In this document: in pieces, positions 1,792 to 28,732 of the stretch
How the letters are laid out: each line of letters begins with the position of its first letter
Numbering within the stretch: the stretch's first letter is position 1
From: Enterococcus pallens ATCC BAA-351
Lineage (GTDB): Bacteria > Bacillota > Bacilli > Lactobacillales > Enterococcaceae
Direction: 5' to 3'
Length of the DNA stretch: 64,000 nucleotides
Assembly (NCBI RefSeq): GCF_000407485.1
Contig: NZ_ASWD01000005.1
Location: forward strand, 124,001-188,000
Program-made: the position numbers and the translations under genes
The notes under the pieces: generated by a model
Databases searched by the model: none
Told to the model about the DNA's origin: nothing
The model's input: only the letters and a program-made list of their open reading frames with translations

Positions 1792-1847
1792 CCTGTTTAG
1801 CTCCTTTTGTCCTTTACTTGAAGGTTATTTTGAAATGCTATACCATA

Positions 1848-1878
1848 GTTATAAACTATCCCTTAAAGGGAAGGTCAA
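1848..1878 (-). promoter_or_regulatory. MerR-type promoter/operator with 19-bp spacer
   Basis: Read on the minus strand, TTGACC (1873-1878) and TATAAC (1848-1853) are separated by 19 bp. The spacer contains the palindromic core CCCTTTAAGGG. The over-long spacer with an internal dyad is the hallmark of MerR/BmrR-class activated promoters. The -35 hexamer also overlaps the ribosome binding site of the divergent MerR gene, so bound regulator could repress its own expression. Confidence 0.8.
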
Positions 1879-1889
1879 GGAGGAAACAG

Positions 1890-2708
1890 GTGGATTATAA
1901 AAATTTGTTAACGATCGGTAAATTAGCCAAAATATCTGGGGTACATGTGAAAGCCTTACGTTATTATGAAAGCATTGGAATATTGCCGCCAACCTATGTT
2001 AATCCAGAAAATGGTTATCGTTATTATTCTCAAGTTCATATTTATTTAGTTGAAACGATTCGTCTTTGTGCCGAATTGAGTATTCCTTTAAAGGAATTGA
2101 AAAAATATATTTCTGAAGAGAGCTTCGTTATTTCTATGCCCGATATCATTGAGATTGGAATTCAGCTAGCTAATCAAAAAATGCGCCAGTTTCAGGATAA
2201 TTTAGCATTTTTAGAGAAAATAAAGCTAGAAATCCAGCGCTCCGATCGCTTATTTGAAGCTGATGAAGCCCAAACAATTACTATTCCTGAAACAGACTAT
2301 TGGTTAGTCCCCTTTAGAGAAACCTTTGATAGTGACAGCTATGAGTATCATCAACTGTTAAATGAAACTTATGTTGAAGTGTTATCTTTAGGGCTGCGAC
2401 CCGTCTATGAAATGGGCACAATGTTAAGATATTCAGGAGAACACTATCAGTCATTTCTTTTTCTGACTTTAGAAAAAAATCAGCGAAACTATTCTTATGA
2501 TCGTACTTTTACAATGCCTAAGACTACTTATGTTTCAAAGCTGACAGAAACAAATACTTCTGATTTAGTTGAGAGACTATTTCCCGAGCTCTCTGACAAA
2601 GATTATGACAAGGTTGTTTTTAAATTGGATATTTTAACAAGCCAATTTAATGCTCATTCTCCTTTGTTTGAAGCTCGTTGTTCCTTACCAGCTGATTATT
2701 CATCTTAA
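1890..2708 (+). CDS. MerR-family transcriptional regulator with effector domain
   Basis: A 272-residue regulator of the BmrR/TipAL-like type. The N-terminus reads LTIGKLAKISGVHVKALRYYESIGILPP, the winged-helix signature of MerR proteins. It is followed by a coiled-coil dimerisation helix (about residues 80-115) and a C-terminal domain of roughly 150 residues that resembles GyrI-like small-molecule binding domains. A GTG start at 1890 is preferred because AAGGAGG (1877-1883) lies just upstream; a longer reading with an ATG at 1704 would run back through the promoter and lacks a binding site. It probably controls the divergent gene at 1435-1791. Confidence 0.88.
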   Translation: MDYKNLLTIGKLAKISGVHVKALRYYESIGILPPTYVNPENGYRYYSQVHIYLVETIRLCAELSIPLKELKKYISEESFVISMPDIIEIGIQLANQKMRQFQDNLAFLEKIKLEIQRSDRLFEADEAQTITIPETDYWLVPFRETFDSDSYEYHQLLNETYVEVLSLGLRPVYEMGTMLRYSGEHYQSFLFLTLEKNQRNYSYDRTFTMPKTTYVSKLTETNTSDLVERLFPELSDKDYDKVVFKLDILTSQFNAHSPLFEARCSLPADYSS

Positions 2709-2900
2709 GCCTATTACACGCACGAGCTTTATAATAAATAAAAATCGTACACTTTTAAGGCGGACGTAAAATCACAAATGTAGATGATCGTAGTGGGAAA
2801 ACTCATAGCAGATTAGCTGTAGACGGTGGAATTGCTTGTTCGAACGAGGCTATCATTACGGCGATTTTTATCATGGAGATCCCTTTACCATAAAAAAATG
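2709..2900 (+). other. Intergenic stretch with protein-like remnant
   Basis: No intact gene was found. Translating forward, one frame from about 2782 gives VDDRSGKTHSRLAVDGGIAC and another frame, ending at a TGA near 2901, gives RGYHYGDFYHGDPFTIKK. Their proximity and protein-like composition suggest the eroded, frameshifted tail of a lost gene. The family is not recognised. Confidence 0.25.
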
Positions 2901-2904
2901 ACTA

Positions 2905-2945
2905 AAAAAGCTGCTCCGGTCTCTAAAATACCGGAGCAGCTTTTT
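2905..2945. terminator. Bidirectional terminator downstream of asnB
   Basis: A 16-bp perfect stem (2905-2920 with 2930-2945), core GCTGCTCCGGT, has A and T tracts on its flanks, so it can stop transcription in both directions. It lies directly after the asnB stop codon. Confidence 0.92.
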
Positions 2946-2947
2946 CT

Positions 2948-4834
2948 CTATGCTACACTAATTGGAGCTGGTACAGGTTTTTCACCATCGTTGATGAAGT
3001 ATACTTGATACCAGGTTAAGAAAGTATAGATCGTCCAAATTTTACGACGACCATCGGCTTTCCCTTCGAAATTATCATCCAACAGCTTCAAGATTTTTTC
3101 TTGATCAAAGAATTCTTTGACAAATTCCTGTTCGAACAGATTGCGAATAATCTTGTAATATTTTTCTTCCCTCAGCCAATCCTTGATTGGTACTGGAAAA
3201 CCTAATTTTTCACGATTGTACCATTCTTCAGGCAAGTGACGAGCGGCTGCTTGACGAAATGCGTATTTCGTATTTTCTGCATTAATCAGATATTTGGTAG
3301 GTACTTGCTCAGAAACCTTCATTAGTTCTTTATCTAACAATGGAACTCGGACCTCCAATGAACTAGCCATTGAAAGCTTGTCCGCTTTTAGCAAAATATC
3401 TTTTGGCATCCATTGGTGCATATCTAAATACTGCATTTTTTTAATTTCAGACATGTCTTGCACTTGATCATAATGTACCTGAACAATGTCCTTAACGCTT
3501 GGACTCGACTGATAAGTTGGTTGTAGATACTCCACAGCTTCTTCTTCTTCAAATACTTTGGCTTGGCCAATAAAGAAATCTTCAGCAGGTGCTAAAGAAG
3601 TATACAGATGCAAGGCACCACGGAAAGTTTTTCCTTTTAGACCGCGACCAATTTTGTAACGCATGCCCTTAGGTAGTTTTTTCAGGCCTTCTGCCACTAC
3701 TTTTACCATTTTAGAATTTGTATTCATTCCATATGCTTGGTAGCCGGCAAATAGTTCATCGGCCCCTTCCCCGCTTAATGCTACTCGTACATCACGACTA
3801 GCTAATTCAGCCAAGAAATATAATGGTACACAGGAAGGATTAGAATCTGGTTCATCTAAATGATATTGAATCAATGGGAAATAATCAAAGGCTTCATCGC
3901 CTGTAACCACCCGTGATGTATTGTTCAGGTTGATTAATTCTGCCAATTTCTTCGCCTCAACCGATTCATTATAGGTCTTATCCCCAAATCCGATGGAATA
4001 AGAATGTTCCGGACGCAGCACAGCAGTTACGTAACTAGAATCCACTCCAGAGGAAAGGAAAGAGCCGACTTCAACATCAGCGATTCGGTGAGCTTCCACT
4101 GAAGAAACCACCGTTTTATCAATTAAATCAACCGTTTCGTCTAAGGTTAAATCAGTTTCCTTTTCATCCACATCCCAATATTGCTCAATCTTCAGCTCGC
4201 CATCTTTATAAGTAAAATAGTGTCCCTCTTTGATGCGGTACACGTTTTTAAAGAAGGTTTCGTCCAAGGCCGAATATTGGAAAGTCATGTAAGGCTTCAA
4301 AGCTTCTTTATTCAATTCCTTCACGAAATTTGGATGCTTCAAAAAGCTCTTGATTTCTGAACCGTACATAAAAGTACCGTTCATTTGTGCATAGTACAAT
4401 GGCTTAATCCCAAAATGATCTCGTGCACCAAACAATTCTTGCTTTTCCGTATCCCAAATAACAAATGCAAACATCCCGCGAATTTTTTGCAGCAGTTCAA
4501 CACCATACTCTTCATACCCATGCAGCAACACTTCAGTATCAGCATGAGTTCTGAAAATATGACCCTTTGCAATTAGATCTTCACGAATGGATTGGTAGTT
4601 ATAAATTTCACCATTAAATGTGATGATTTTTGTTTCATCTTCGTTATAGATCGGCTGTGAGCCGCCTTCTAAGTCAATGATACTTAACCGACGAAAGCCC
4701 AATGCCACTCCTTCATCAATAAATTGACCAGAGCTGTTTGGCCCACGGTGAACAATGGTATCCATCATTTCTTTGATGACTTGCTCTTTTTGTGTTGTAT
4801 TTGAACGATCAACGAATCCTACAATTCCGCACAC
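2948..4834 (-). CDS. asnB: Asparagine synthetase (glutamine-hydrolysing)
   Basis: A 628-residue class B asparagine synthetase, which makes asparagine from aspartate, glutamine and ATP in the cytoplasm. The N-terminal Ntn glutaminase domain begins MCGIVGFVD, so Cys2 is the nucleophile once the initiator Met is removed. Further motifs are RRLSIIDLEGGSQP and FNGEIYN. The synthetase domain carries the PP-loop SSGVDSSYV and GEGADELFAGY. The start is GTG (4832-4834) with AGAGGG upstream. Its length matches the AsnB/AsnO type of Bacillus. It is monocistronic, with its own promoter and terminator. Confidence 0.95.
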   Translation of the reverse strand: MCGIVGFVDRSNTTQKEQVIKEMMDTIVHRGPNSSGQFIDEGVALGFRRLSIIDLEGGSQPIYNEDETKIITFNGEIYNYQSIREDLIAKGHIFRTHADTEVLLHGYEEYGVELLQKIRGMFAFVIWDTEKQELFGARDHFGIKPLYYAQMNGTFMYGSEIKSFLKHPNFVKELNKEALKPYMTFQYSALDETFFKNVYRIKEGHYFTYKDGELKIEQYWDVDEKETDLTLDETVDLIDKTVVSSVEAHRIADVEVGSFLSSGVDSSYVTAVLRPEHSYSIGFGDKTYNESVEAKKLAELINLNNTSRVVTGDEAFDYFPLIQYHLDEPDSNPSCVPLYFLAELASRDVRVALSGEGADELFAGYQAYGMNTNSKMVKVVAEGLKKLPKGMRYKIGRGLKGKTFRGALHLYTSLAPAEDFFIGQAKVFEEEEAVEYLQPTYQSSPSVKDIVQVHYDQVQDMSEIKKMQYLDMHQWMPKDILLKADKLSMASSLEVRVPLLDKELMKVSEQVPTKYLINAENTKYAFRQAAARHLPEEWYNREKLGFPVPIKDWLREEKYYKIIRNLFEQEFVKEFFDQEKILKLLDDNFEGKADGRRKIWTIYTFLTWYQVYFINDGEKPVPAPISVA

Positions 4835-4887
4835 ACTGTCTACCCTCTTTCAAATAACCTCAGATACACATAGGTATCAACTTTCAA

Positions 4888-4916
4888 AGTATATCATAGG
4901 ATATCGCGACTTTCAC
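4888..4916 (-). promoter_or_regulatory. Probable asnB promoter (extended -10)
   Basis: On the minus strand TGATATACT forms an extended -10 (TATACT at 4888-4893), with a weak -35, GTGAAA, 17 bp upstream (4911-4916). The asnB start lies about 50 bp downstream. Confidence 0.5.
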
Positions 4917-5144
4917 GACTTGCGCAGTTTTTCCCGGAATTTTATCAAAAAATCTTAATTTTTTACAAAGGGTGAAAAGTAACTGGTAGGCACATTTTCT
5001 TTGACTGTCTCATAGTGTGATTATTTACCGATACCTAATTTATTGATCAAAGCCATATTATTTGCGGAATGCTTTATCAAAGCCACTAACTTATATGCTT
5101 TTTTTGACCTTGTTATGAGCAATAAAAAATTCATTTAACTATTT
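4917..5144. other. Intergenic, no gene seen
   Basis: AT-rich DNA between asnB and the next minus-strand gene. The only structure noticed is a short repeated word, ATCAAAGCCA, near 5046 and 5086. No open frame with a ribosome binding site was found. Confidence 0.5.
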
Positions 5145-23388: not shown

Positions 23389-23808
23389 TTGACTAGAAAA
23401 TATCAGTTTAGTGAATACAAAAAGGGAAATATATTAAGCTATTTGAAAAGCAACAATCAGTCTACTTTATACGATGATCAACAAATTGTCCTCTATTACT
23501 CTGAGGAAAATGAAGCAAAAATAGGGTTAACTATGGTTGTAGTTCCTCAAGAAAGAGCGCATAAAGTATTTATTTTTGTTGATGATTACTTATCTTATGC
23601 GATCTTTGATGGCACCAAATACTATTATATTAATCTAGGAAAATTTGTGATATCTGACGAAAAAGCAAGTCGACCATCCTATCTTCAAACTGGCATGCAT
23701 CAAATAAAAGCAGCTCAATTTAGTAATGATAATCCTAATACAGGTAAATTAATCAGCATTACTACTGAAAGCTACATGATTAAAGACAAGCCAGAACAGT
23801 TGAATTGA
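23389..23808 (+). CDS. Unknown 139-aa protein
   Basis: A protein with a beta-rich middle (IVLYYSEEN, GLTMVVVPQ, KVFIFVDDYLSYAIF) and no membrane helix. The start is TTG (23389-23391), preceded by GAGGTGAAGG. The family is not recognised. It sits at the chromosomal side of the attL repeat and is followed by a GC-rich hairpin. The only gene-like feature directly upstream is the 19-aa frame at 23282. Confidence 0.65.
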   Translation: MTRKYQFSEYKKGNILSYLKSNNQSTLYDDQQIVLYYSEENEAKIGLTMVVVPQERAHKVFIFVDDYLSYAIFDGTKYYYINLGKFVISDEKASRPSYLQTGMHQIKAAQFSNDNPNTGKLISITTESYMIKDKPEQLN

Positions 23809-23835
23809 CCGACTTAAAGATTATAAATCTAAATA

Positions 23836-23875
23836 CCGTGGGCTTTGCCATTCTTGTAAAGCCCATGGTTTATGA
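23836..23875 (+). terminator. Probable terminator of the 139-aa gene
   Basis: CCGTGGGCTTT (23836-23846) pairs with AAAGCCCATGG (23858-23868) and is followed by TTTATGATT. The stem is strong but the T tract is poor. Confidence 0.6.
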
Positions 23876-23934
23876 TTAATTAGCTATTTCCTTCTAAAAA
23901 TTTATTAGTCAAGTATTCCCAGTTTCACCTATGT

Positions 23935-23958
23935 AAGTTCCGCTTCCCCACGGAACTT
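23935..23958. repeat. Perfect inverted repeat
   Basis: AAGTTCCG (23935-23942) and CGGAACTT (23951-23958) flank an 8-base loop. No gene uses it obviously. It lies between the 139-aa gene and the attL-side terminator, outside the integrative element. Confidence 0.5.
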
Positions 23959-24000
23959 GCTCCTATTAAGATTAGGGCATTTCCCTATATTTAAGAAAAT

Positions 24001-24033
24001 AAAAAAAGGCTTCCCCTTAACAGAGAAGACTTT
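24001..24033 (-). terminator. Displaced terminator of the DUF59 gene
   Basis: On the minus strand AAAGTCTTC (24033-24025) pairs, with one mismatch, with GAAGCCTTT (24013-24005), followed by a T run. It lies 16 bp beyond the attL copy of the DUF59 gene end, the place where the terminator of that gene would be before insertion. Confidence 0.7.
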
Positions 24034-24048
24034 TAATAAAACCTGTCT

Positions 24049-24114
24049 TTATCTAATTCCTAATGCAATCCGAGCATAACGGCTCATTTTGTCAGTGGTC
24101 CACGCTGGGTACCA
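24049..24114 (-). repeat. attL, 66-bp direct repeat (duplicated end of the DUF59 gene)
   Basis: Identical over 66 bp to 28220-28285. It encodes, on the minus strand, the last 21 codons plus the stop of the DUF59 gene (...RYARIALGIR) but has no gene attached. It marks the left end of the integrative element. Confidence 0.95.
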
Positions 24115-24213
24115 AACACCTAAATGATAGTTTTAAGTTATTTAATTAAGAAAATGCTTCTCTTTAGGTATCTCTTAGTGCTTAGTATATCAATTAAAAT
24201 AAAAGAAAAAAAT

Positions 24214-24268
24214 TTGGACTACCTATAAGACAACATTACTTATTTAAAATTACTTATCAGTAGTCCAA
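24214..24268. repeat. Inverted arm-type sites, left end
   Basis: TTGGACTAC (24214-24222) and GTAGTCCAA (24260-24268) are inverted copies. The right one in full, TTATCAGTAGTCCAA (24254-24268), resembles TTATCAGTTGTCCA (28079-28092) at the other end. Their place near both att sites suggests recombinase arm-binding sites. Confidence 0.5.
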
Positions 24269-24356
24269 TAAAATTTCTATATCTCCTACTTTACAAAAAT
24301 ATTAACAATACGAGAATATATGTTTGCATAAGTGAATAACATTGGGGAGATCAGAA

Positions 24357-24638
24357 ATGGAAGCATATAAAGAAACTAGGCAGATGACTGATCATCAGAT
24401 TGACACAATCATCCTTGCAGCTTTTGCAGCTAAACAACAAGTCACAATAACTCAAACAAATGGCAAACAATATTCTTGTTTTTATCTTCTGATTTTTGAT
24501 CAAGATGGTTTCAGTTTGACAACTTCATATATTTGGTGGAAAGACATCCAGTTTGTTCAGCCTGATTCAGAGTTTTATACAGAATGGGCTGATGTTCTTA
24601 ATAACTATGTTTCAGAGATCAATTCTAAGCCAATTTAA
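24357..24638 (+). CDS. Small unknown cargo protein (possibly YolD-like)
   Basis: A 93-residue protein. The middle (QQVTITQTNGKQYSCFYLLIF..IWWKDIQFVQ) has the alternating strand pattern seen in YolD-like proteins, but similarity is weak. The ATG at 24357 follows GGGGAG by seven bases; a TTG at 24342 would lie inside that site. The next gene starts 23 bp downstream, so the two form an operon at the left end of the element. Function unknown; an accessory or anti-defence role is only a guess. Confidence 0.65.
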   Translation: MEAYKETRQMTDHQIDTIILAAFAAKQQVTITQTNGKQYSCFYLLIFDQDGFSLTTSYIWWKDIQFVQPDSEFYTEWADVLNNYVSEINSKPI

Positions 24639-24661
24639 AGATGAAAGGTAGGTGATTAGTC

Positions 24662-24967
24662 ATGAAACTGTTCCATAAGTTGCAATCAAAAAAATACATA
24701 GATGATATGCCTTACTGGTTTGCAAAAAAGGGACAGCCCTACTCTGTGCCCCTCAGCACTGCTATAAAGGCAAATGGTAGAAGCTATGATTCTTCTTATA
24801 GATACCACAAAGATGGTAAAACAATGTTTGTCATCACTACAATCAAAAACTATTATATAGACTTTCCATATCATAAGGCTCTATTTTTTGAATTATCACC
24901 AATGGAAATTCATCTTTCAGGAAAACCAGTTGAGTATATGGTTGAGGATTTCTTTAAACCAGACTGA
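24662..24967 (+). CDS. Small unknown cargo protein
   Basis: A 101-residue protein, aromatic-rich (YRYHKDGKTMFVITTIKNYYIDFPYHKALFFEL), predicted to be beta-rich and soluble. AGGTGA lies upstream of the ATG. It is cotranscribed with the 93-aa gene and ends just before a bidirectional terminator shared with the FRG-domain gene. No family recognised. Its composition is as AT-rich as the rest of the element. Confidence 0.65.
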   Translation: MKLFHKLQSKKYIDDMPYWFAKKGQPYSVPLSTAIKANGRSYDSSYRYHKDGKTMFVITTIKNYYIDFPYHKALFFELSPMEIHLSGKPVEYMVEDFFKPD

Positions 24968-24985
24968 CAAAAAAAGATGGCATAG

Positions 24986-25014
24986 AAAAAGGGTGCATTA
25001 CTGCAACCCTTTTT
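24986..25014. terminator. Bidirectional terminator inside the element
   Basis: AAAAAGGGTGCA (24986-24997) pairs with TGCAACCCTTTTT (25002-25014) allowing one bulge. It separates the two small plus-strand genes from the convergent FRG gene. Confidence 0.85.
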
Positions 25015-25018
25015 CTTA

Positions 25019-26377
25019 TTATTTGTATTTACTAGTTATATGCTTTGCAATGTTATCGGGATCAAGATAAATTGTCCCTCTGTTAATTCCCATGTAGTCT
25101 AATTCTTTTAATACAGTTTCTTTATTCTCAATTAGAATCCTTTCATTACTAACAATTTTCTGAATTACTCTCGCAGTATATTTTGTATTTTTGTCATTAT
25201 TAATGTAATTGTATTTAGCTGAAATTTGATACAAAAAATTACCTTGTTGTGCTTTTATTCTGCCAAACTTGACACTAGGATTAACCAAAAGATATGGTAA
25301 ATGTGGAAGATACTCTGATGTCCTATTTACATATATGCTTCTACCTAGAACAAATAGAGCAATATCTAGAAGACAGAAATACTTAAATACACTATCTTGC
25401 TTGATCTGTTTTTGAACTTCACCACCCATTTCATAAAAAGAAATGTAAGAATTATTCAAAGATAAATACTTTGCAAACAGAACATCCACAAGTGTTTGTT
25501 CTGTTTCATAATGTAAAAGCTTAGGGAATTGGTCATCATAGTCATAACTAGGGTCTTCTTCATCCCACACATGTGTGTATACATCAGATAGACCTTCATG
25601 TATGAAATCCTCAATTGATTGGGTTTCTTTTAGATAGTCTCCTTCAATGTATTTGGTATTTAACAGTTTAGCTACTTCCATATAATTTTGATAGACAACA
25701 TCATTTTTCATATGTTTTGGAGCATCATCCATCATATCAATAACAGGAAAATCACTAATGTACTTTATCAAATCATTATTCCAGACATTAAGTATAGAGT
25801 TAATGCTTTTATCTTGCTGCCTAGCCCTTTCAAGTCCATTGAACATTAAAGAAAATAGCTCACTCCCTTTATTTGCAAGCATAGACAGGTATTCTTTTTC
25901 AATGTCAATATCCCAAAATCCTTTATGTGGGATGCTGCTAATGTCAATGCACAACCTCTTATCAAAAACATGCAGTTGACCTTGCTCCCCCTGCCCATCT
26001 TCATTAGTAGCAAAATATAATGCAGTATTCAGTATTTCTGTGGTATCAAGTAATGGAGTTGGTAATCCATGATGCTGAGAATAAAACAAGAAATTATTCT
26101 CTTCTAAAGTAGAAATATCAGCACCAATTTCTCCATGATACTCTTGGATAATTTTCAGAAAATTTGGGTCTCGCAATCTGTTCACTGATGCAATTGGATC
26201 TGAGTAAACTCCAGCCTCTCCTCTTAGAAGAACACTATTGTCACCAGAGTAAAGGCTGTTTCCAGTTTCGCCACTAAGAAACTTATCATATATGTCCTTT
26301 AAATTTTTCACATTGGTGACATTTGGTTTACTATACATAGAATATTTACTAAATAATTCTTCATCACTTTTATTCAA
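25019..26377 (-). CDS. FRG-domain protein
   Basis: A 452-residue cytoplasmic protein. The N-terminal third carries the FRG domain: the Arg-Gly motif in LLRGEAG (about 50-56), FYSQHHGLPTPLLDTT (98-113) and ALYFATNE (119-126), matching the Q-H-x-G-x-P-T-x-L-L-D pattern of the family. The remaining 300 residues are mostly helical and unrecognised. FRG domains occur in phage- and mobile-element-associated proteins; their activity is unknown. The start is TTG behind AAGGGGTG. It is the largest cargo gene, alone on its strand next to the recombinase, and a candidate phage-defence or exclusion factor by context. Confidence 0.85.
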   Translation of the reverse strand: MNKSDEELFSKYSMYSKPNVTNVKNLKDIYDKFLSGETGNSLYSGDNSVLLRGEAGVYSDPIASVNRLRDPNFLKIIQEYHGEIGADISTLEENNFLFYSQHHGLPTPLLDTTEILNTALYFATNEDGQGEQGQLHVFDKRLCIDISSIPHKGFWDIDIEKEYLSMLANKGSELFSLMFNGLERARQQDKSINSILNVWNNDLIKYISDFPVIDMMDDAPKHMKNDVVYQNYMEVAKLLNTKYIEGDYLKETQSIEDFIHEGLSDVYTHVWDEEDPSYDYDDQFPKLLHYETEQTLVDVLFAKYLSLNNSYISFYEMGGEVQKQIKQDSVFKYFCLLDIALFVLGRSIYVNRTSEYLPHLPYLLVNPSVKFGRIKAQQGNFLYQISAKYNYINNDKNTKYTARVIQKIVSNERILIENKETVLKELDYMGINRGTIYLDPDNIAKHITSKYK

Positions 26378-26887
26378 AAAAACACCCCTTATTGACTATC
26401 TATGCAAAGTTTACCAAAATGTTTGATGTCAGTAAATGGAAATATCAATATATATTTATTCCTTATAATTAGTATGAACAATAGTAATTTTGTTGCTTCA
26501 AAATTTGTGATCATTGAGTTATGCAATACACTCTCACCTGGCCCTTGAGTAACCTTTCAAGCAAGAGTCTTTTTTCTTCTCAATTATTTAAAAAGAGCTG
26601 TTTTTTCAGGCAGAGAACTCAAATAAACTCTGCAAATGCTTGATAAGGGAAATTAGCCTACATAAGGACTCCCTCCTACACCTTTTTAATGGTCTGGTAG
26701 TAACACCCCAGATATTTTCAACAGCTTCTCACCATTATAGAGACAAAATGCCCCAACTGTTGTCTGTAATTTTTTTGTGGCAGTCCTACAGCAGACTCTT
26801 TTTCTTTGAGTGTCAGCTCTCTGACTGACCTTTTAACTCTTTCAGCCTAAGAAAAACTTTCAATAAGGCTGACCAGAACTCCTCTAG
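26378..26887. other. Non-coding part of the element
   Basis: About 510 bp without a convincing gene. It holds the 5' region of the FRG gene and small hairpins such as GCAGAG/CTCTGC (26610-26633). A short frame at 26640-26828 on the plus strand has no ribosome binding site and is not called. Confidence 0.5.
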
Positions 26888-26916
26888 TTGAAAATATGGA
26901 TACCTCTTTGTATAAT
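26888..26916 (+). promoter_or_regulatory. Near-consensus sigma-A promoter
   Basis: TTGAAA (26888-26893), an exact 17-bp spacer and a perfect TATAAT (26911-26916). No protein gene follows; a terminator lies about 100 bp downstream, implying a short RNA. Confidence 0.8.
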
Positions 26917-26922
26917 GAGGAG

Positions 26923-27025
26923 TAACTGGTTTATGAAGTATTAATGCTCAATGAACCTAAGTAGATCAGTTGTGAAGCTTTGTCAGAGCTTCTGAGTCTC
27001 CTGTCGTCAGCAGGAGGCTCTTTTT
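26923..27025 (+). ncRNA. Candidate small RNA of the integrative element
   Basis: The predicted transcript of about 100 nt runs from the promoter at 26888-26916 to the terminator ending near 27025. It can form GAAGCT/AGCTTC (26974-26992) before the terminator hairpin. Open frames inside are 14 codons or fewer and lack good binding sites. It points toward the 3' end of the recombinase gene without overlapping it. Role unknown. Confidence 0.55.
26994..27025 (+). terminator. Terminator of the candidate small RNA
   Basis: GAGTCTCCTG (26994-27003) and CAGGAGGCTC (27011-27020) form the stem with one mismatch, followed by TTTTT. Confidence 0.85.
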
Positions 27026-27030
27026 GGTTC

Positions 27031-28004
27031 TTACCTTTTCAAATTCATTAATGGACTGTTTGTTAATCCTTTTTTCAATACCTTGTCAGAAGATATTGAT
27101 CTTAGGTAAGTTTCAGTTGTTTGTATTGATGAATGCCCTAACAGCCTTTGGATGTCATAAATACTAGTCCCTAAATCTAGTTGTTTTTGAGTAAAGTAAT
27201 GTCTAAAAGTATGGGGACTCATTCTTACAGTGGGATCACAACCTGATTCAATACCTATTTTTCTTATAGCAATTTCAGTAGCATCATTTGTCAATTTCTC
27301 ACCTAGCCTTGAGACAAATAAATATGGGTCTGGGATTAAATCTCTTGATTTAAAATATTGTTCTTTAGCCATTTCATACTTCAATTTCTGTTTCTGATGT
27401 GTATACAACCCTGTCCTCTTTACCTTTGCCTCTACTTATAAAAATGTCTCTTTCAGTGAAATCATCAGAGTGTAAATTTTCTAACTCACTTATTCTTAAT
27501 CCTGTATCAGTCAGCAACATAATCATTAATCTATTTCTCTCAGCAATAAACCAAGAAGATTGTCCTCTACTACTTTTAATTCTCTTTCTGGTCTCCTTAA
27601 CCTCCATTTCTGTGTATCTAAGCATTTTTTCAATATCCTCATCAGACCAAGACCTAACTATTTTCTTTTGCTCTTTTCATCCATTTAACTCTTAGGGTTG
27701 AATTCTCCTGTTGAGTCATATAATCTTCATTTTCTGCATAAATACACATTGCTCTTATTGATCTCAAAAAGACATTTACATAGGACTCAGCATTCTCCTC
27801 ACCTTTTTTATAAGCCTTAAACATTTTAATATGTGCAAGTTTTAGTTGATCAAGGGATGATATTTGAAACTGATCTTCCAAATACCTAAAAAACATGTTC
27901 AATACCTTATTATTTTTCTTTATTGATTTTTCTGTTAATCCTCTTGCTCTGTCAGTAAGCTCCATTTCAATTAGCGAACTTTGAAAATCTATGTTTATTA
28001 CCAT
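27031..28004 (-). pseudogene. int: Tyrosine recombinase/integrase, split by two frameshifts
   Basis: Three consecutive frames together make one XerC/D-like integrase of about 320 residues. Part 1 (28004 to about 27690) is the SAM-like core-binding domain. Part 2 has the catalytic Arg in DTGLRISELENLHSDDF. Part 3 has HTFRHYF, GHSS and the nucleophile in TETYLR. Both breaks are +1 shifts: near 27690, where AKE continues as KIVRSWSDEDIE, and near 27370, where EIEV continues as EMAKEQYF. It is either a decaying gene or two sequencing errors in A-rich runs. The start ATG follows GGGGAGGG. Confidence 0.88.
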
Positions 28005-28078
28005 AACAAGAAAGCCCTCCCCATATCTCAATTAAGAGCTACAGAGAGAGCTTTATTCTTAAATATCTTAAAAACAAA

Positions 28079-28092
28079 TTATCAGTTGTCCA
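28079..28092. repeat. Arm-type site, right end
   Basis: TTATCAGTTGTCCA matches 13 of 14 bases of the left-end site at 24254-24267. It lies between the recombinase start and attR, where a recombinase arm site would be expected. Confidence 0.45.
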
Positions 28093-28219
28093 TATAGAAG
28101 AATATTCCCACAGTTATAAAAAACATGCTAACTGGATTCCCTACTAGTTATACTCACCAAGAATGAAATCTGAATTGGTATACCTGATAAAATACATTTA
28201 AAACACTGACATTACAGTA

Positions 28220-28285
28220 TTATCTAATTCCTAATGCAATCCGAGCATAACGGCTCATTTTGTCAGTGGTCCACGCTGGGTACCA
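28220..28285 (-). repeat. attR, 66-bp direct repeat at the 3' end of the DUF59 gene
   Basis: Identical to 24049-24114. It forms the last 22 codons, including the stop, of the intact DUF59 gene, so integration regenerates the reading frame exactly. Confidence 0.95.
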
Positions 28286-28561
28286 TACTAGTTTCACTTC
28301 TACATTGTTGACTTCTGGAATTTCGTGTAATGCAGATTGAATTTGATCAGTCAATACATCAGCTAAAGGACAGCCCATTGTAGTTAAAGTCATTTTAATT
28401 ACTGCATTTCCACTTTGTTCAAAATCCACTTCATAAATCAAGCCAAGATTTACGATATCTATCCCTAATTCTGGGTCAATGACAGATTCCAAAGCTGTTA
28501 AAATGCGTTCTTTAATCTCTTCGATTTCTGACTCAGACCAATTCTGTTTATTTTCTTCCAT
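28220..28561 (-). CDS. DUF59/MIP18-family metal-sulfur cluster assembly protein (SufT-like)
   Basis: A 113-residue DUF59 protein, implicated in maturation of iron-sulfur proteins. Hallmarks are LESVIDPELGIDIVNLGLIYEV, the conserved Cys in LTTMGCPLAD, and VELVW-like VEVKLVWYPAW. The ATG at 28561 is preferred over a longer frame because GGGGTGG is correctly spaced. Its 3' end is the attachment site of the integrative element: the C-terminal 21 residues are encoded by attR, and the original terminator now lies 4.2 kb away. It is otherwise intact. Confidence 0.92.
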   Translation of the reverse strand: MEENKQNWSESEIEEIKERILTALESVIDPELGIDIVNLGLIYEVDFEQSGNAVIKMTLTTMGCPLADVLTDQIQSALHEIPEVNNVEVKLVWYPAWTTDKMSRYARIALGIR

Positions 28562-28732
28562 TCGTTGCCACCCCTTTTTCGAGTTTCGCATTTATTTTAC
28601 TCTATCAATAAGGTTTTGTAAATGAGAACTGGCAGGTTTTTCCTGATCTCATGAAAATAAAGCTTTTTCTTAAACAAAGAGCTTGTCATTAGTACTCTTG
28701 GCAGGAGTACTAATGCTCCTAACAATAAATAC

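What the first reader, a model, noticed from the sequence alone, without database searches (positions are those of the whole stretch)
24049..28285. 4.2-kb integrative element with perfect 66-bp att repeats in a SufT-like gene
Two identical 66-bp repeats flank recombinase and cargo. The right one completes the DUF59 gene, the left one is an orphan copy of its tail. The element lacks replication and transfer genes, so it is a minimal island, and a conserved iron-sulfur assembly gene is an uncommon attachment site compared with tRNA genes.
Basis: partly seen in the sequence, partly recalled or inferred. Interest (0 to 1): 0.85.

Follow-up and report, generated by a model that had tools for sequence, protein, structure and literature searches.

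The report
Broken defence island behind DUF59 gene
A small mobile DNA element, now probably stuck because its integration enzyme is broken, sits in the tail of a conserved iron-sulfur assembly gene, a spot that related elements, several with likely phage-defence genes, have repeatedly occupied in enterococci and their relatives.

Summary
Confirmed: 24049-24114 and 28220-28285 are identical over 66 bp; one completes a DUF59 gene, the other is an orphan tail 4,171 bp away. It is a site-specific insertion: a terminator lies beyond the orphan copy, where relatives without insert have theirs behind the gene, and congeners lack the insert. But the tyrosine recombinase is broken into three ORFs: a remnant. 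Cargo: one FRG-domain protein (PADLOC candidate defence family PDC-S15).

The site is a hotspot. Of 105 family genomes 10 carry an orphan tail, one more an adjacent integrase. In the order, the 15 integrases scoring best against one member all sit directly behind DUF59; the next 15 do not, most lying behind enolase-like or guaA-like genes. Several siblings carry known or candidate defence genes; the window's nearest integrase relatives (Vagococcus) ride in about 12-kb phage-satellite-like elements.

Two unforeseen features: a strong hairpin holding the integrase ribosome-binding site, found in most of the clade; and a ~370-nt covarying non-coding RNA candidate behind the integrase, whose 3' half also occurs on two Vagococcus plasmids, without a credible Rfam match.

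Integration behind housekeeping genes is known; this site, hairpin and RNA were not found in print in my ten searches.

The parts
28220..28591 (-). DUF59 / FeS_assembly_P (SufT-like) gene, target gene, reading frame restored by the att copy
   Evidence: PF01883 E 9e-24; a match in 103 of 105 family genomes
28220..28285 (-). attachment repeat completing the DUF59 gene, 66 bp
   Evidence: 66/66 identical to 24049-24114
24049..24114 (-). orphan attachment repeat, tail copy of the DUF59 gene
24010..24028 (-). terminator-like site, taken as the displaced native terminator of the DUF59 gene
   Evidence: terminator scan; terminators directly follow DUF59 in relatives without an insert, by eye
28011..28054 (-). 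hairpin whose 3' arm holds the integrase ribosome-binding site; ends a few nt before the start codon (28004-28002); the run of T behind it is weak in the window
   Evidence: -23.0 to -24.3 kcal/mol; found in most of the clade; not flagged by the terminator scans
27654..28004 (-). integrase, N-terminal fragment (SAM-like domain)
27374..27625 (-). integrase, middle fragment (first catalytic Arg region)
27031..27408 (-). integrase, C-terminal fragment (HxxR ... H ... Tyr)
   Evidence: PF00589 E 2e-14; 63% and 60% to the V. bubulae and V. vulneris integrases
26526..26896 (-). conserved non-coding segment, candidate structured RNA
   Evidence: no credible Rfam match
25019..26377 (-). cargo: 452-aa FRG-domain protein, candidate phage-defence gene (PADLOC PDC-S15), intact ORF
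   Evidence: PF08867 41 bits vs cut-off 25; PDC-S15 E 1e-22; phrog_24967 E 1e-32; weak relatives in 3 other genomes of 105
24662..24967 (+). small cargo ORF, 101 aa, unknown
   Evidence: no family; matches in 3 of 105 family genomes, own included
24360..24638 (+). small cargo ORF, 92 aa, unknown
   Evidence: no convincing family; weak relatives in 11 other genomes of 105

Best explanation
This is the remnant of an integrative element inserted by a tyrosine recombinase of a clade that is found at the 3' end of the DUF59 (SufT-like) gene. Mechanism: (1) the circular element carried a copy of the last 66 bp of the gene; recombination with the chromosomal copy split the locus, so that the gene kept an intact coding end supplied with the element while its original end and terminator moved 4.2 kb away (supported by anatomy and comparison; no circle was seen). 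(2) The insertion put the integrase gene co-directionally behind a conserved host gene; a hairpin carried by the element just before the integrase start, with the ribosome-binding site in its 3' arm, probably keeps read-through mRNA from being translated into integrase and, in members with a good run of T, ends the host transcript (structure and conservation by computation; function inferred). (3) The payload is an FRG-domain protein, probably anti-phage (inferred from PADLOC and from the defence-type cargo of sibling elements). (4) The element descends from a lineage whose nearest relatives are about 12-kb phage-satellite-like elements in Vagococcus; it lost their core genes, kept the att sites, the RNA segment and a cargo gene, and its integrase then broke, so it can now leave only with an integrase supplied in trans (inferred).
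For: Perfect repeats with the gene tail restored; terminator beyond the orphan copy; congeners without insert. Ten of 105 family genomes have an orphan DUF59 tail, each with a related integrase within about 210 bp behind DUF59. In the order survey the 15 best-scoring integrases (E <= 2.1e-59) are behind DUF59, the 15 others (E 7.4e-49 to 2.8e-41) are not. In the named scan 11 of 80 kept loci, those at 39% identity or more, are adjacent to DUF59; in the other 69, at 37% or less, no DUF59 was found in the flank held. Tree: the window is in a starred clade with V. bubulae and V. vulneris (100/99). The leader hairpin is at or below -16.8 kcal/mol in 16 of 17 clade members against 2 of 154 control genes. 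Defence-type cargo; phage genes in the nearest relatives.
Against: The genome with the same genes beyond the left end (G011) does not have a bare junction but 3.3 kb of other DNA between DUF59 and the next shared gene, and the contig of G005, the closest by DUF59, ends there, so the empty site in the closest relatives is seen only in part. Percent identity alone does not separate the integrase groups: G159, 36% over 250 residues, is not at DUF59 while G280, 35%, is. No excisionase was recognised. FRG function in defence is untested. The hairpin's terminator role is a prediction: the window's own run of T is weak (TTTCTT) and no scan flagged it; my scan of the gap found terminator-like sites in 5 of 18 elements; two Lactococcus members lack the hairpin and G280a is weak (-5.2, -6.7, -10.1 kcal/mol). 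Satellite ancestry rests on the integrase and one non-coding segment only.
Confidence: 0.85

Rival explanations
1. The repeat arose by partial duplication of the DUF59 tail, and the genes between are unrelated to it.
For: Repeat plus intervening DNA alone would fit.
Against: Independent inserts with tails of the same gene and integrases of one clade in 10 of 105 genomes; a terminator is beyond the orphan copy; the orphan homology starts at nearly the same codons in G000 and G009.
Confidence: 0.03
2. The element is intact and mobile; the two frame breaks are sequencing or assembly errors, or programmed frameshifts.
For: All three fragments keep 54-63% identity to the V. bubulae integrase, and the catalytic regions are preserved.
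Against: Two independent breaks; at the second break about three residues of the aligned homologue are absent as well, which a single miscalled base does not explain. The ten homologues aligned were read in one frame. I did not see the reads.
Confidence: 0.1
3. It was never a satellite: it belongs to integrase-only defence islands that move by an unknown route.
For: The sibling branch (G004, G024, G058 and others) carries defence-type genes; no phage structural gene was recognised in the products I submitted from it (part of the ORFs only). Integrase-only defence islands are described in E. coli (passages of PMC10121019).
Against: The window integrase groups with elements that carry phage head, portal or tail genes, and its 370-bp non-coding segment was found in full only in those.
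Confidence: 0.35

Closest known systems
Integrative and mobilizable or other islands in 3' ends of housekeeping genes (guaA, rplL, rpmE, rpsI; PMC5704250, PMC5357655, passages)
   Same: Single tyrosine integrase at one end, 3' end of the target gene restored by the direct repeat.
   Different: Target is DUF59; no relaxase seen here; the integrase faces inward, co-directional with the target gene, whereas streptococcal IME integrases are reported as almost all outward facing.
Integrase-only defence islands of E. coli hotspots (PMC10121019, passages)
   Same: Integrase plus interchangeable defence genes at a fixed site, no recognised transfer genes.
   Different: Different host, site and integrase; here the integrase is broken.
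Phage satellites (PICI / capsid-carrying PICI; recalled)
   Same: The nearest integrase relatives in V. bubulae and V. vulneris lie in about 12-kb elements; matches there include DNA-binding or replication-type, head, tail, portal and small-terminase families.
   Different: The window element has none of these genes; induction by a helper phage is untested for all, and degenerate prophages are not excluded.
Tn916 terminator T1, an insulator against host transcription (PMC11658703, passages)
   Same: Structure at the element end where host transcription enters, close to the start of a first gene.
   Different: Here it precedes the integrase gene, holds its ribosome-binding site, and belongs to site-specific elements; function untested.
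Fold-back inhibition of IS10 / IS50 transposase (recalled)
   Same: Ribosome-binding site hidden in mRNA that starts outside the element.
   Different: Integrase, not transposase; not tested.

Membership tests
Site-specific integrative element (tyrosine recombinase) | Flanking direct repeats, one restoring the target gene | tested here: met
Site-specific integrative element (tyrosine recombinase) | Site without insert in relatives | tested here: met
   G001, G006, G014; G005 only up to the contig end; G011 has other DNA there; same species not available
Site-specific integrative element (tyrosine recombinase) | Intact integrase gene | tested here: not met
   three ORFs in three frames; hence 'remnant'
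Site-specific integrative element (tyrosine recombinase) | Excision circle | not testable with these tools
   needs PCR or reads
DUF59-site integrase clade (defined here) | Groups with integrases located behind DUF59 | tested here: met
   100/95 support for the 15-row clade that holds the window; with G280a 86/63
PICI-type phage satellite | Regulators, replication and packaging or interference genes | tested here: not met
   no such family in the window's ORFs (PHROGs only for the FRG protein); phage genes only in relatives
PICI-type phage satellite | Induction by helper phage | not testable with these tools
   bench test
ICE / IME | Relaxase, conjugation genes or oriT | tested here: not met
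   no relaxase or conjugation family among the submitted ORFs; oriT not searched
SufT / SUF_assoc | Score above the NCBIfam cut-off | tested here: not met
   94.9 vs 202.6 and 106.3 vs 143.4 bits; the Pfam domain PF01883 is met
FRG-domain proteins / PADLOC PDC-S15 | FRG domain above the gathering score; PDC-S15 profile match | tested here: met
   41.3 vs 25 bits; E 1e-22
FRG-domain proteins / PADLOC PDC-S15 | Protection from phage | not testable with these tools
   bench test
ROOL or another Rfam RNA | Covariance model match | tested here: not met
   no match up to E 1 in window 23800-28700; best in 26400-27030 is RAGATH-22 at 20.2 vs 120.3 bits; RF03087 in 0 of 7 genomes, but it rang in none of its 14 control genomes either

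The most novel reading that the evidence does not exclude
The element carries a structured RNA of about 370 nt not in Rfam (window 26526-26896, minus strand), shared by elements at the DUF59 site in Enterococcus relatives and Vagococcus, with its 3' half also near an integrase-like ORF in G057 and in two copies each on two Vagococcus plasmids. It would be a new RNA family of mobile elements, kept by this remnant after the core genes were lost.
Probability: 0.55. Interest if true: 0.75.

Novelty: new variant of a known kind. Interest (0 to 1): 0.6.

Why it matters
It names a recurrent integration site in enterococci and relatives where defence-type genes and satellite-like elements are exchanged, gives a rule (integrase clade predicts site) that makes such islands easy to find, proposes a testable way in which an element silences its integrase when parked behind a host gene, and points to an uncatalogued RNA carried by mobile elements and plasmids.

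Tried and rejected
FRG relatives in viral contigs: none confirmed; solved structures: nothing better than E 0.087. The two small ORFs gave no convincing family. Integrase relatives in the phage collection were all under 60% identity (21 records, 291) and none was followed up. No structure prediction was made: few relatives of the FRG protein were available as allowed input. ROOL was considered for the RNA and not supported. Single-sequence folding of the RNA was not clearly more stable than shuffles (z -1.6, 0.9, 0.4; the opposite strand of the window segment gave -1.5), so the case rests on covariation and homology. R1 matches of about 24 bits or less and seven of eight pattern hits in viral contigs (the eighth is V. 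bubulae itself) were set aside as chance. The RNAalifold alignment of leader hairpins gave a near-zero covariation term (-0.12), as MAFFT does not align the arms; that case rests on the control comparison. A first, coarser run of the same comparison is superseded.

Literature: ten searches, all used. Searches gave 0 papers; others (2 hold the terms, 1 listed; 1) gave nothing relevant by their listings; some searches gave listings from which passages of four papers were seen. PMC4701971 was seen only in a listing. The library holds open-licence papers only, so 'not in print' is limited to these searches.
Full report
OBSERVATION. The two repeats are real: 24049-24114 and 28220-28285 agree in 66 of 66 bases (68 of 69 when extended) at a spacing of 4,171 bp, and the genome search shows no third copy. 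The right copy is the 3' end of an intact gene of the FeS_assembly_P (DUF59) family; it scores below NCBIfam's cut-offs for SUF_assoc and SufT. The left copy is an orphan. Between them lie a tyrosine recombinase in three ORFs, an intact 452-aa FRG-domain ORF and two small ORFs.

IT IS AN INSERTION. In relatives without an insert a terminator follows the DUF59 stop codon directly (G001, G005, G011, G014, by eye). In the window my simple scan found no terminator in the 208 bp behind the gene, and a terminator-like site lies just beyond the orphan copy, at 24028-24010. Of the 20 genus genomes, 4 hold an insert at the site (G000, G004, G009, G019), 14 were examined and gave no match to the window's integrase fragments and no second tail, and in 2 (G005, G015) the contig ends near DUF59. 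In G001, G006 and G014 the next conserved gene comes within about 130-480 bp of DUF59; in the other 11 of the 14 the distance is larger, with other ORFs between. Among these is G011, which shares the genes next to the left end and has 3.3 kb of other DNA there.

A HOTSPOT WITH ITS OWN INTEGRASE CLADE. Among 105 genomes of the family (103 with a DUF59 match), 10 carry an extra DUF59 tail: G000, G004, G009, G019, G023, G024, G026, G041, G058, G071. In G009 and G026 the two copies are on different contigs; the G009 tail contig continues into the usual downstream genes, that of G026 was not checked. An eleventh, G029, has a related integrase behind DUF59 but no tail found. All 11 have an integrase of one kind right behind DUF59 on the same strand. 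In the family the extra tails come in two lengths, 60-66 bp and about 174 bp. In several pairs the two copies differ near the stop codon; in G004 and G019 the last codons of gene and orphan are of exchanged types, as expected if the element brings its own tail.

With the G041 integrase as query, 395 genomes of the order gave 30 matches at E <= 1e-40 in 29 genomes (at most 5 candidates per genome were scored, and the window's own broken gene is not among the matches, so this is a lower bound). The 15 best (E <= 2.1e-59; 35-100% identity) lie directly behind DUF59, in G280 behind a DUF59 tail at a contig start; the other 15 (E 7.4e-49 to 2.8e-41; 29-36%) do not. Score separates the groups, percent identity does not quite: G159 has 36% over 250 residues. 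Of the other 15, eleven follow a gene with one shared C-terminal motif, identified as enolase in the one tested, and two follow a guaA-like gene, of which one was tested; G036 and G159 are unassigned. In GTDB representatives (366 relatives, the best 80 kept) 11 loci, at 39-100% identity, are adjacent to DUF59: Vagococcus bubulae, V. vulneris, V. acidifermentans, Enterococcus lactis, 'E. faecalis' 13-SD-W-01, E. dongliensis, E. xiangfangensis, E. italicus, E. ratti, Lactococcus formosensis and L. cremoris. In the other 69, at 37% or less, no DUF59 was found in the flank held, which is cut short by contig ends in some. Of 51 viral-contig loci one, L174, shows DUF59 next to the integrase; L173 and L175 begin at the integrase. 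The tree of 31 integrases puts the 16 DUF59-site rows on one side of a branch (86/63; 100/95 without G280a) and the window with V. bubulae and V. vulneris (100/99), away from G004 and G019 of its own genus; G009 and G029 were not in the tree. I infer movement between genera.

THE INTEGRASE IS BROKEN. Against V. bubulae the three fragments align at 58, 54 and 63% in three different frames. The region of the first catalytic arginine and the HxxR, H and Y regions (motifs recalled) survive in the pieces. One break looks like a small slip; at the other about three residues are missing as well. I infer a recent pseudogene. G009's integrase is also in pieces.

CARGO. The FRG protein exceeds Pfam's gathering score and matches PADLOC candidate family PDC-S15 and two PHROGs of unknown function. 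Relatives are rare: weak matches in 3 other genomes of 105 and in 3 plasmids. I gave PADLOC 20 large ORFs, chosen by me, of seven further elements. At least one ORF of each element matched: G004 (PDC-S56, type II restriction-modification, Gabija A and B), G058 (Tmn, kinase), G026 (Pycsar cyclase; contig link not checked), G024 (SIR2: LmuA/ThsA), G173 (type I restriction-modification), G124 (PDC-M62A), G253 (PD-Lambda-1); 3 of the 20 had no match at the thresholds used (one each from G058, G173, G253). These are profile matches, not tested systems. The remaining elements were not scanned with PADLOC. G041 has a tape-measure protein, V. bubulae a major head, a major tail and a small-terminase match, V. 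vulneris portal and head proteins. G071 carries IS21-type and MatE genes. G023 and G019 carry further recombinases. Starts of a second element after the orphan tail appear in G019 (56 bp only), G041, G058, G173 and G207, 5 of 15 tested, so elements seem to pile up in tandem.

LEADER HAIRPIN. Just before the integrase start the window has a 44-nt hairpin (28011-28054) whose 3' arm holds the ribosome-binding site. The same scan gave -16.8 kcal/mol or lower in 16 of 17 DUF59-site elements (G280a -10.1) against 2 of 154 control genes from the same loci and the window (Mann-Whitney p 1.5e-11). Caveats: many of the 17 are close relatives (G004 and G019 are identical here), so p overstates; starts were chosen by a ribosome-binding-site rule, three of them by hand; G009 was not scanned this way. 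Two Lactococcus members lack it (-5.2, -6.7), and 9 of 15 sister integrases have it at -16 or lower. In 15 of the 16 a run of at least five T follows the ribosome-binding site before the start codon (sequences); the exception is the window itself (TTTCTT). My terminator scan of the gap, with a stem limit of 12, flagged 5 of 18 elements. I read the hairpin as hiding the integrase start from read-through mRNA and, in members with the T run, as a replacement terminator. Tn916's T1 is an experimentally shown analogue (PMC11658703, passages); fold-back inhibition in IS10 and IS50 is recalled.

NON-CODING SEGMENT. 26526-26896 (minus strand) matches the segment behind the integrase in V. vulneris (74% over 229 bp and 27 of 29 bp), V. 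bubulae (69% over 175 bp) and G041 (80% over 55 bp); stop codons interrupt every frame in all four, though one 32-residue stretch aligns at 53% with V. vulneris. RNAalifold on the four gives 34 pairs, 10 with changes on both sides; 91.9% of cells pair, against 39.7-52.6% when slid by 1-3 columns, and 0 of 500 shuffles reach the count of double changes. The structure was derived from this alignment, and four sequences are few. A blast with the V. vulneris segment found it in G207, G138 and G000 among 395 order genomes; 8 other genomes gave only matches of about 25-35 bases, and G041 was not found this way. A model of the 3' half found, among 390 order genomes, those four plus G057 (51.8 bits) and G118 and G131 (two copies each, 35-38 bits); the next match has 24 bits; at most 6 candidates per genome were scored, with strict filters. 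On eight sequences 12 of 27 pairs have double changes; this alignment is fitted to the model. The G118 and G131 copies are on plasmids of Vagococcus luciliae and Vagococcus sp. CY52-2, with no feature annotated under them, next to an AAA-family ATPase gene that looks ParA-like to me. The G057 copy lies behind an ORF that looks like an integrase by eye; no family search was made. In the plasmids the 5' half differs. No credible Rfam match.

VERDICT. The element itself is ordinary in kind and broken. The wider system, a DUF59-site integrase clade with defence-type and satellite-like payloads, a widespread leader hairpin and a candidate RNA, is the more interesting result. Whether the site is known outside the open papers searched I cannot say.

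Noticed in passing
window 26526-26896 (-); L065:2282-2633; L066:11286-11662 (-); L053:2399-2723; L249, L250, L251, L264: Candidate structured RNA of mobile elements; the 3' half is shared with two Vagococcus plasmids and with a locus in G057.
   Followed up: partly
window 28011-28054 (-): Integrase leader hairpin holding the ribosome-binding site, also at -16 kcal/mol or lower in 9 of 15 sister integrases at enolase-like, guaA-like and other sites.
   Followed up: partly
L067/L068 (G173): The DUF59 copy beyond the element is full length (110 aligned aa), its last 174 bp identical to the first copy's, about 36 kb away, followed by another element start.
   Followed up: no
L066:10110-10183 (-): The V. 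vulneris element encodes a tRNA gene (Rfam RF00005, 60 bits).
   Followed up: no
L078-L092: Sister integrases sit behind an enolase-like gene (11 of 15 by C-terminal motif, one tested) and a guaA-like gene (2 of 15, one tested); further hotspots worth a survey.
   Followed up: no
L073/L074 (G280 contig C27, 29.6 kb): The contig begins and ends inside a DUF59 tail with the integrase at its start; could be an assembly break at the repeats or a circular form.
   Followed up: no
L040 (G011) about 1815-5129: 3.3 kb with a 454-aa and a 350-aa ORF between DUF59 and the next shared gene, without integrase match or second tail: another insertion, or ancestral genes.
   Followed up: no
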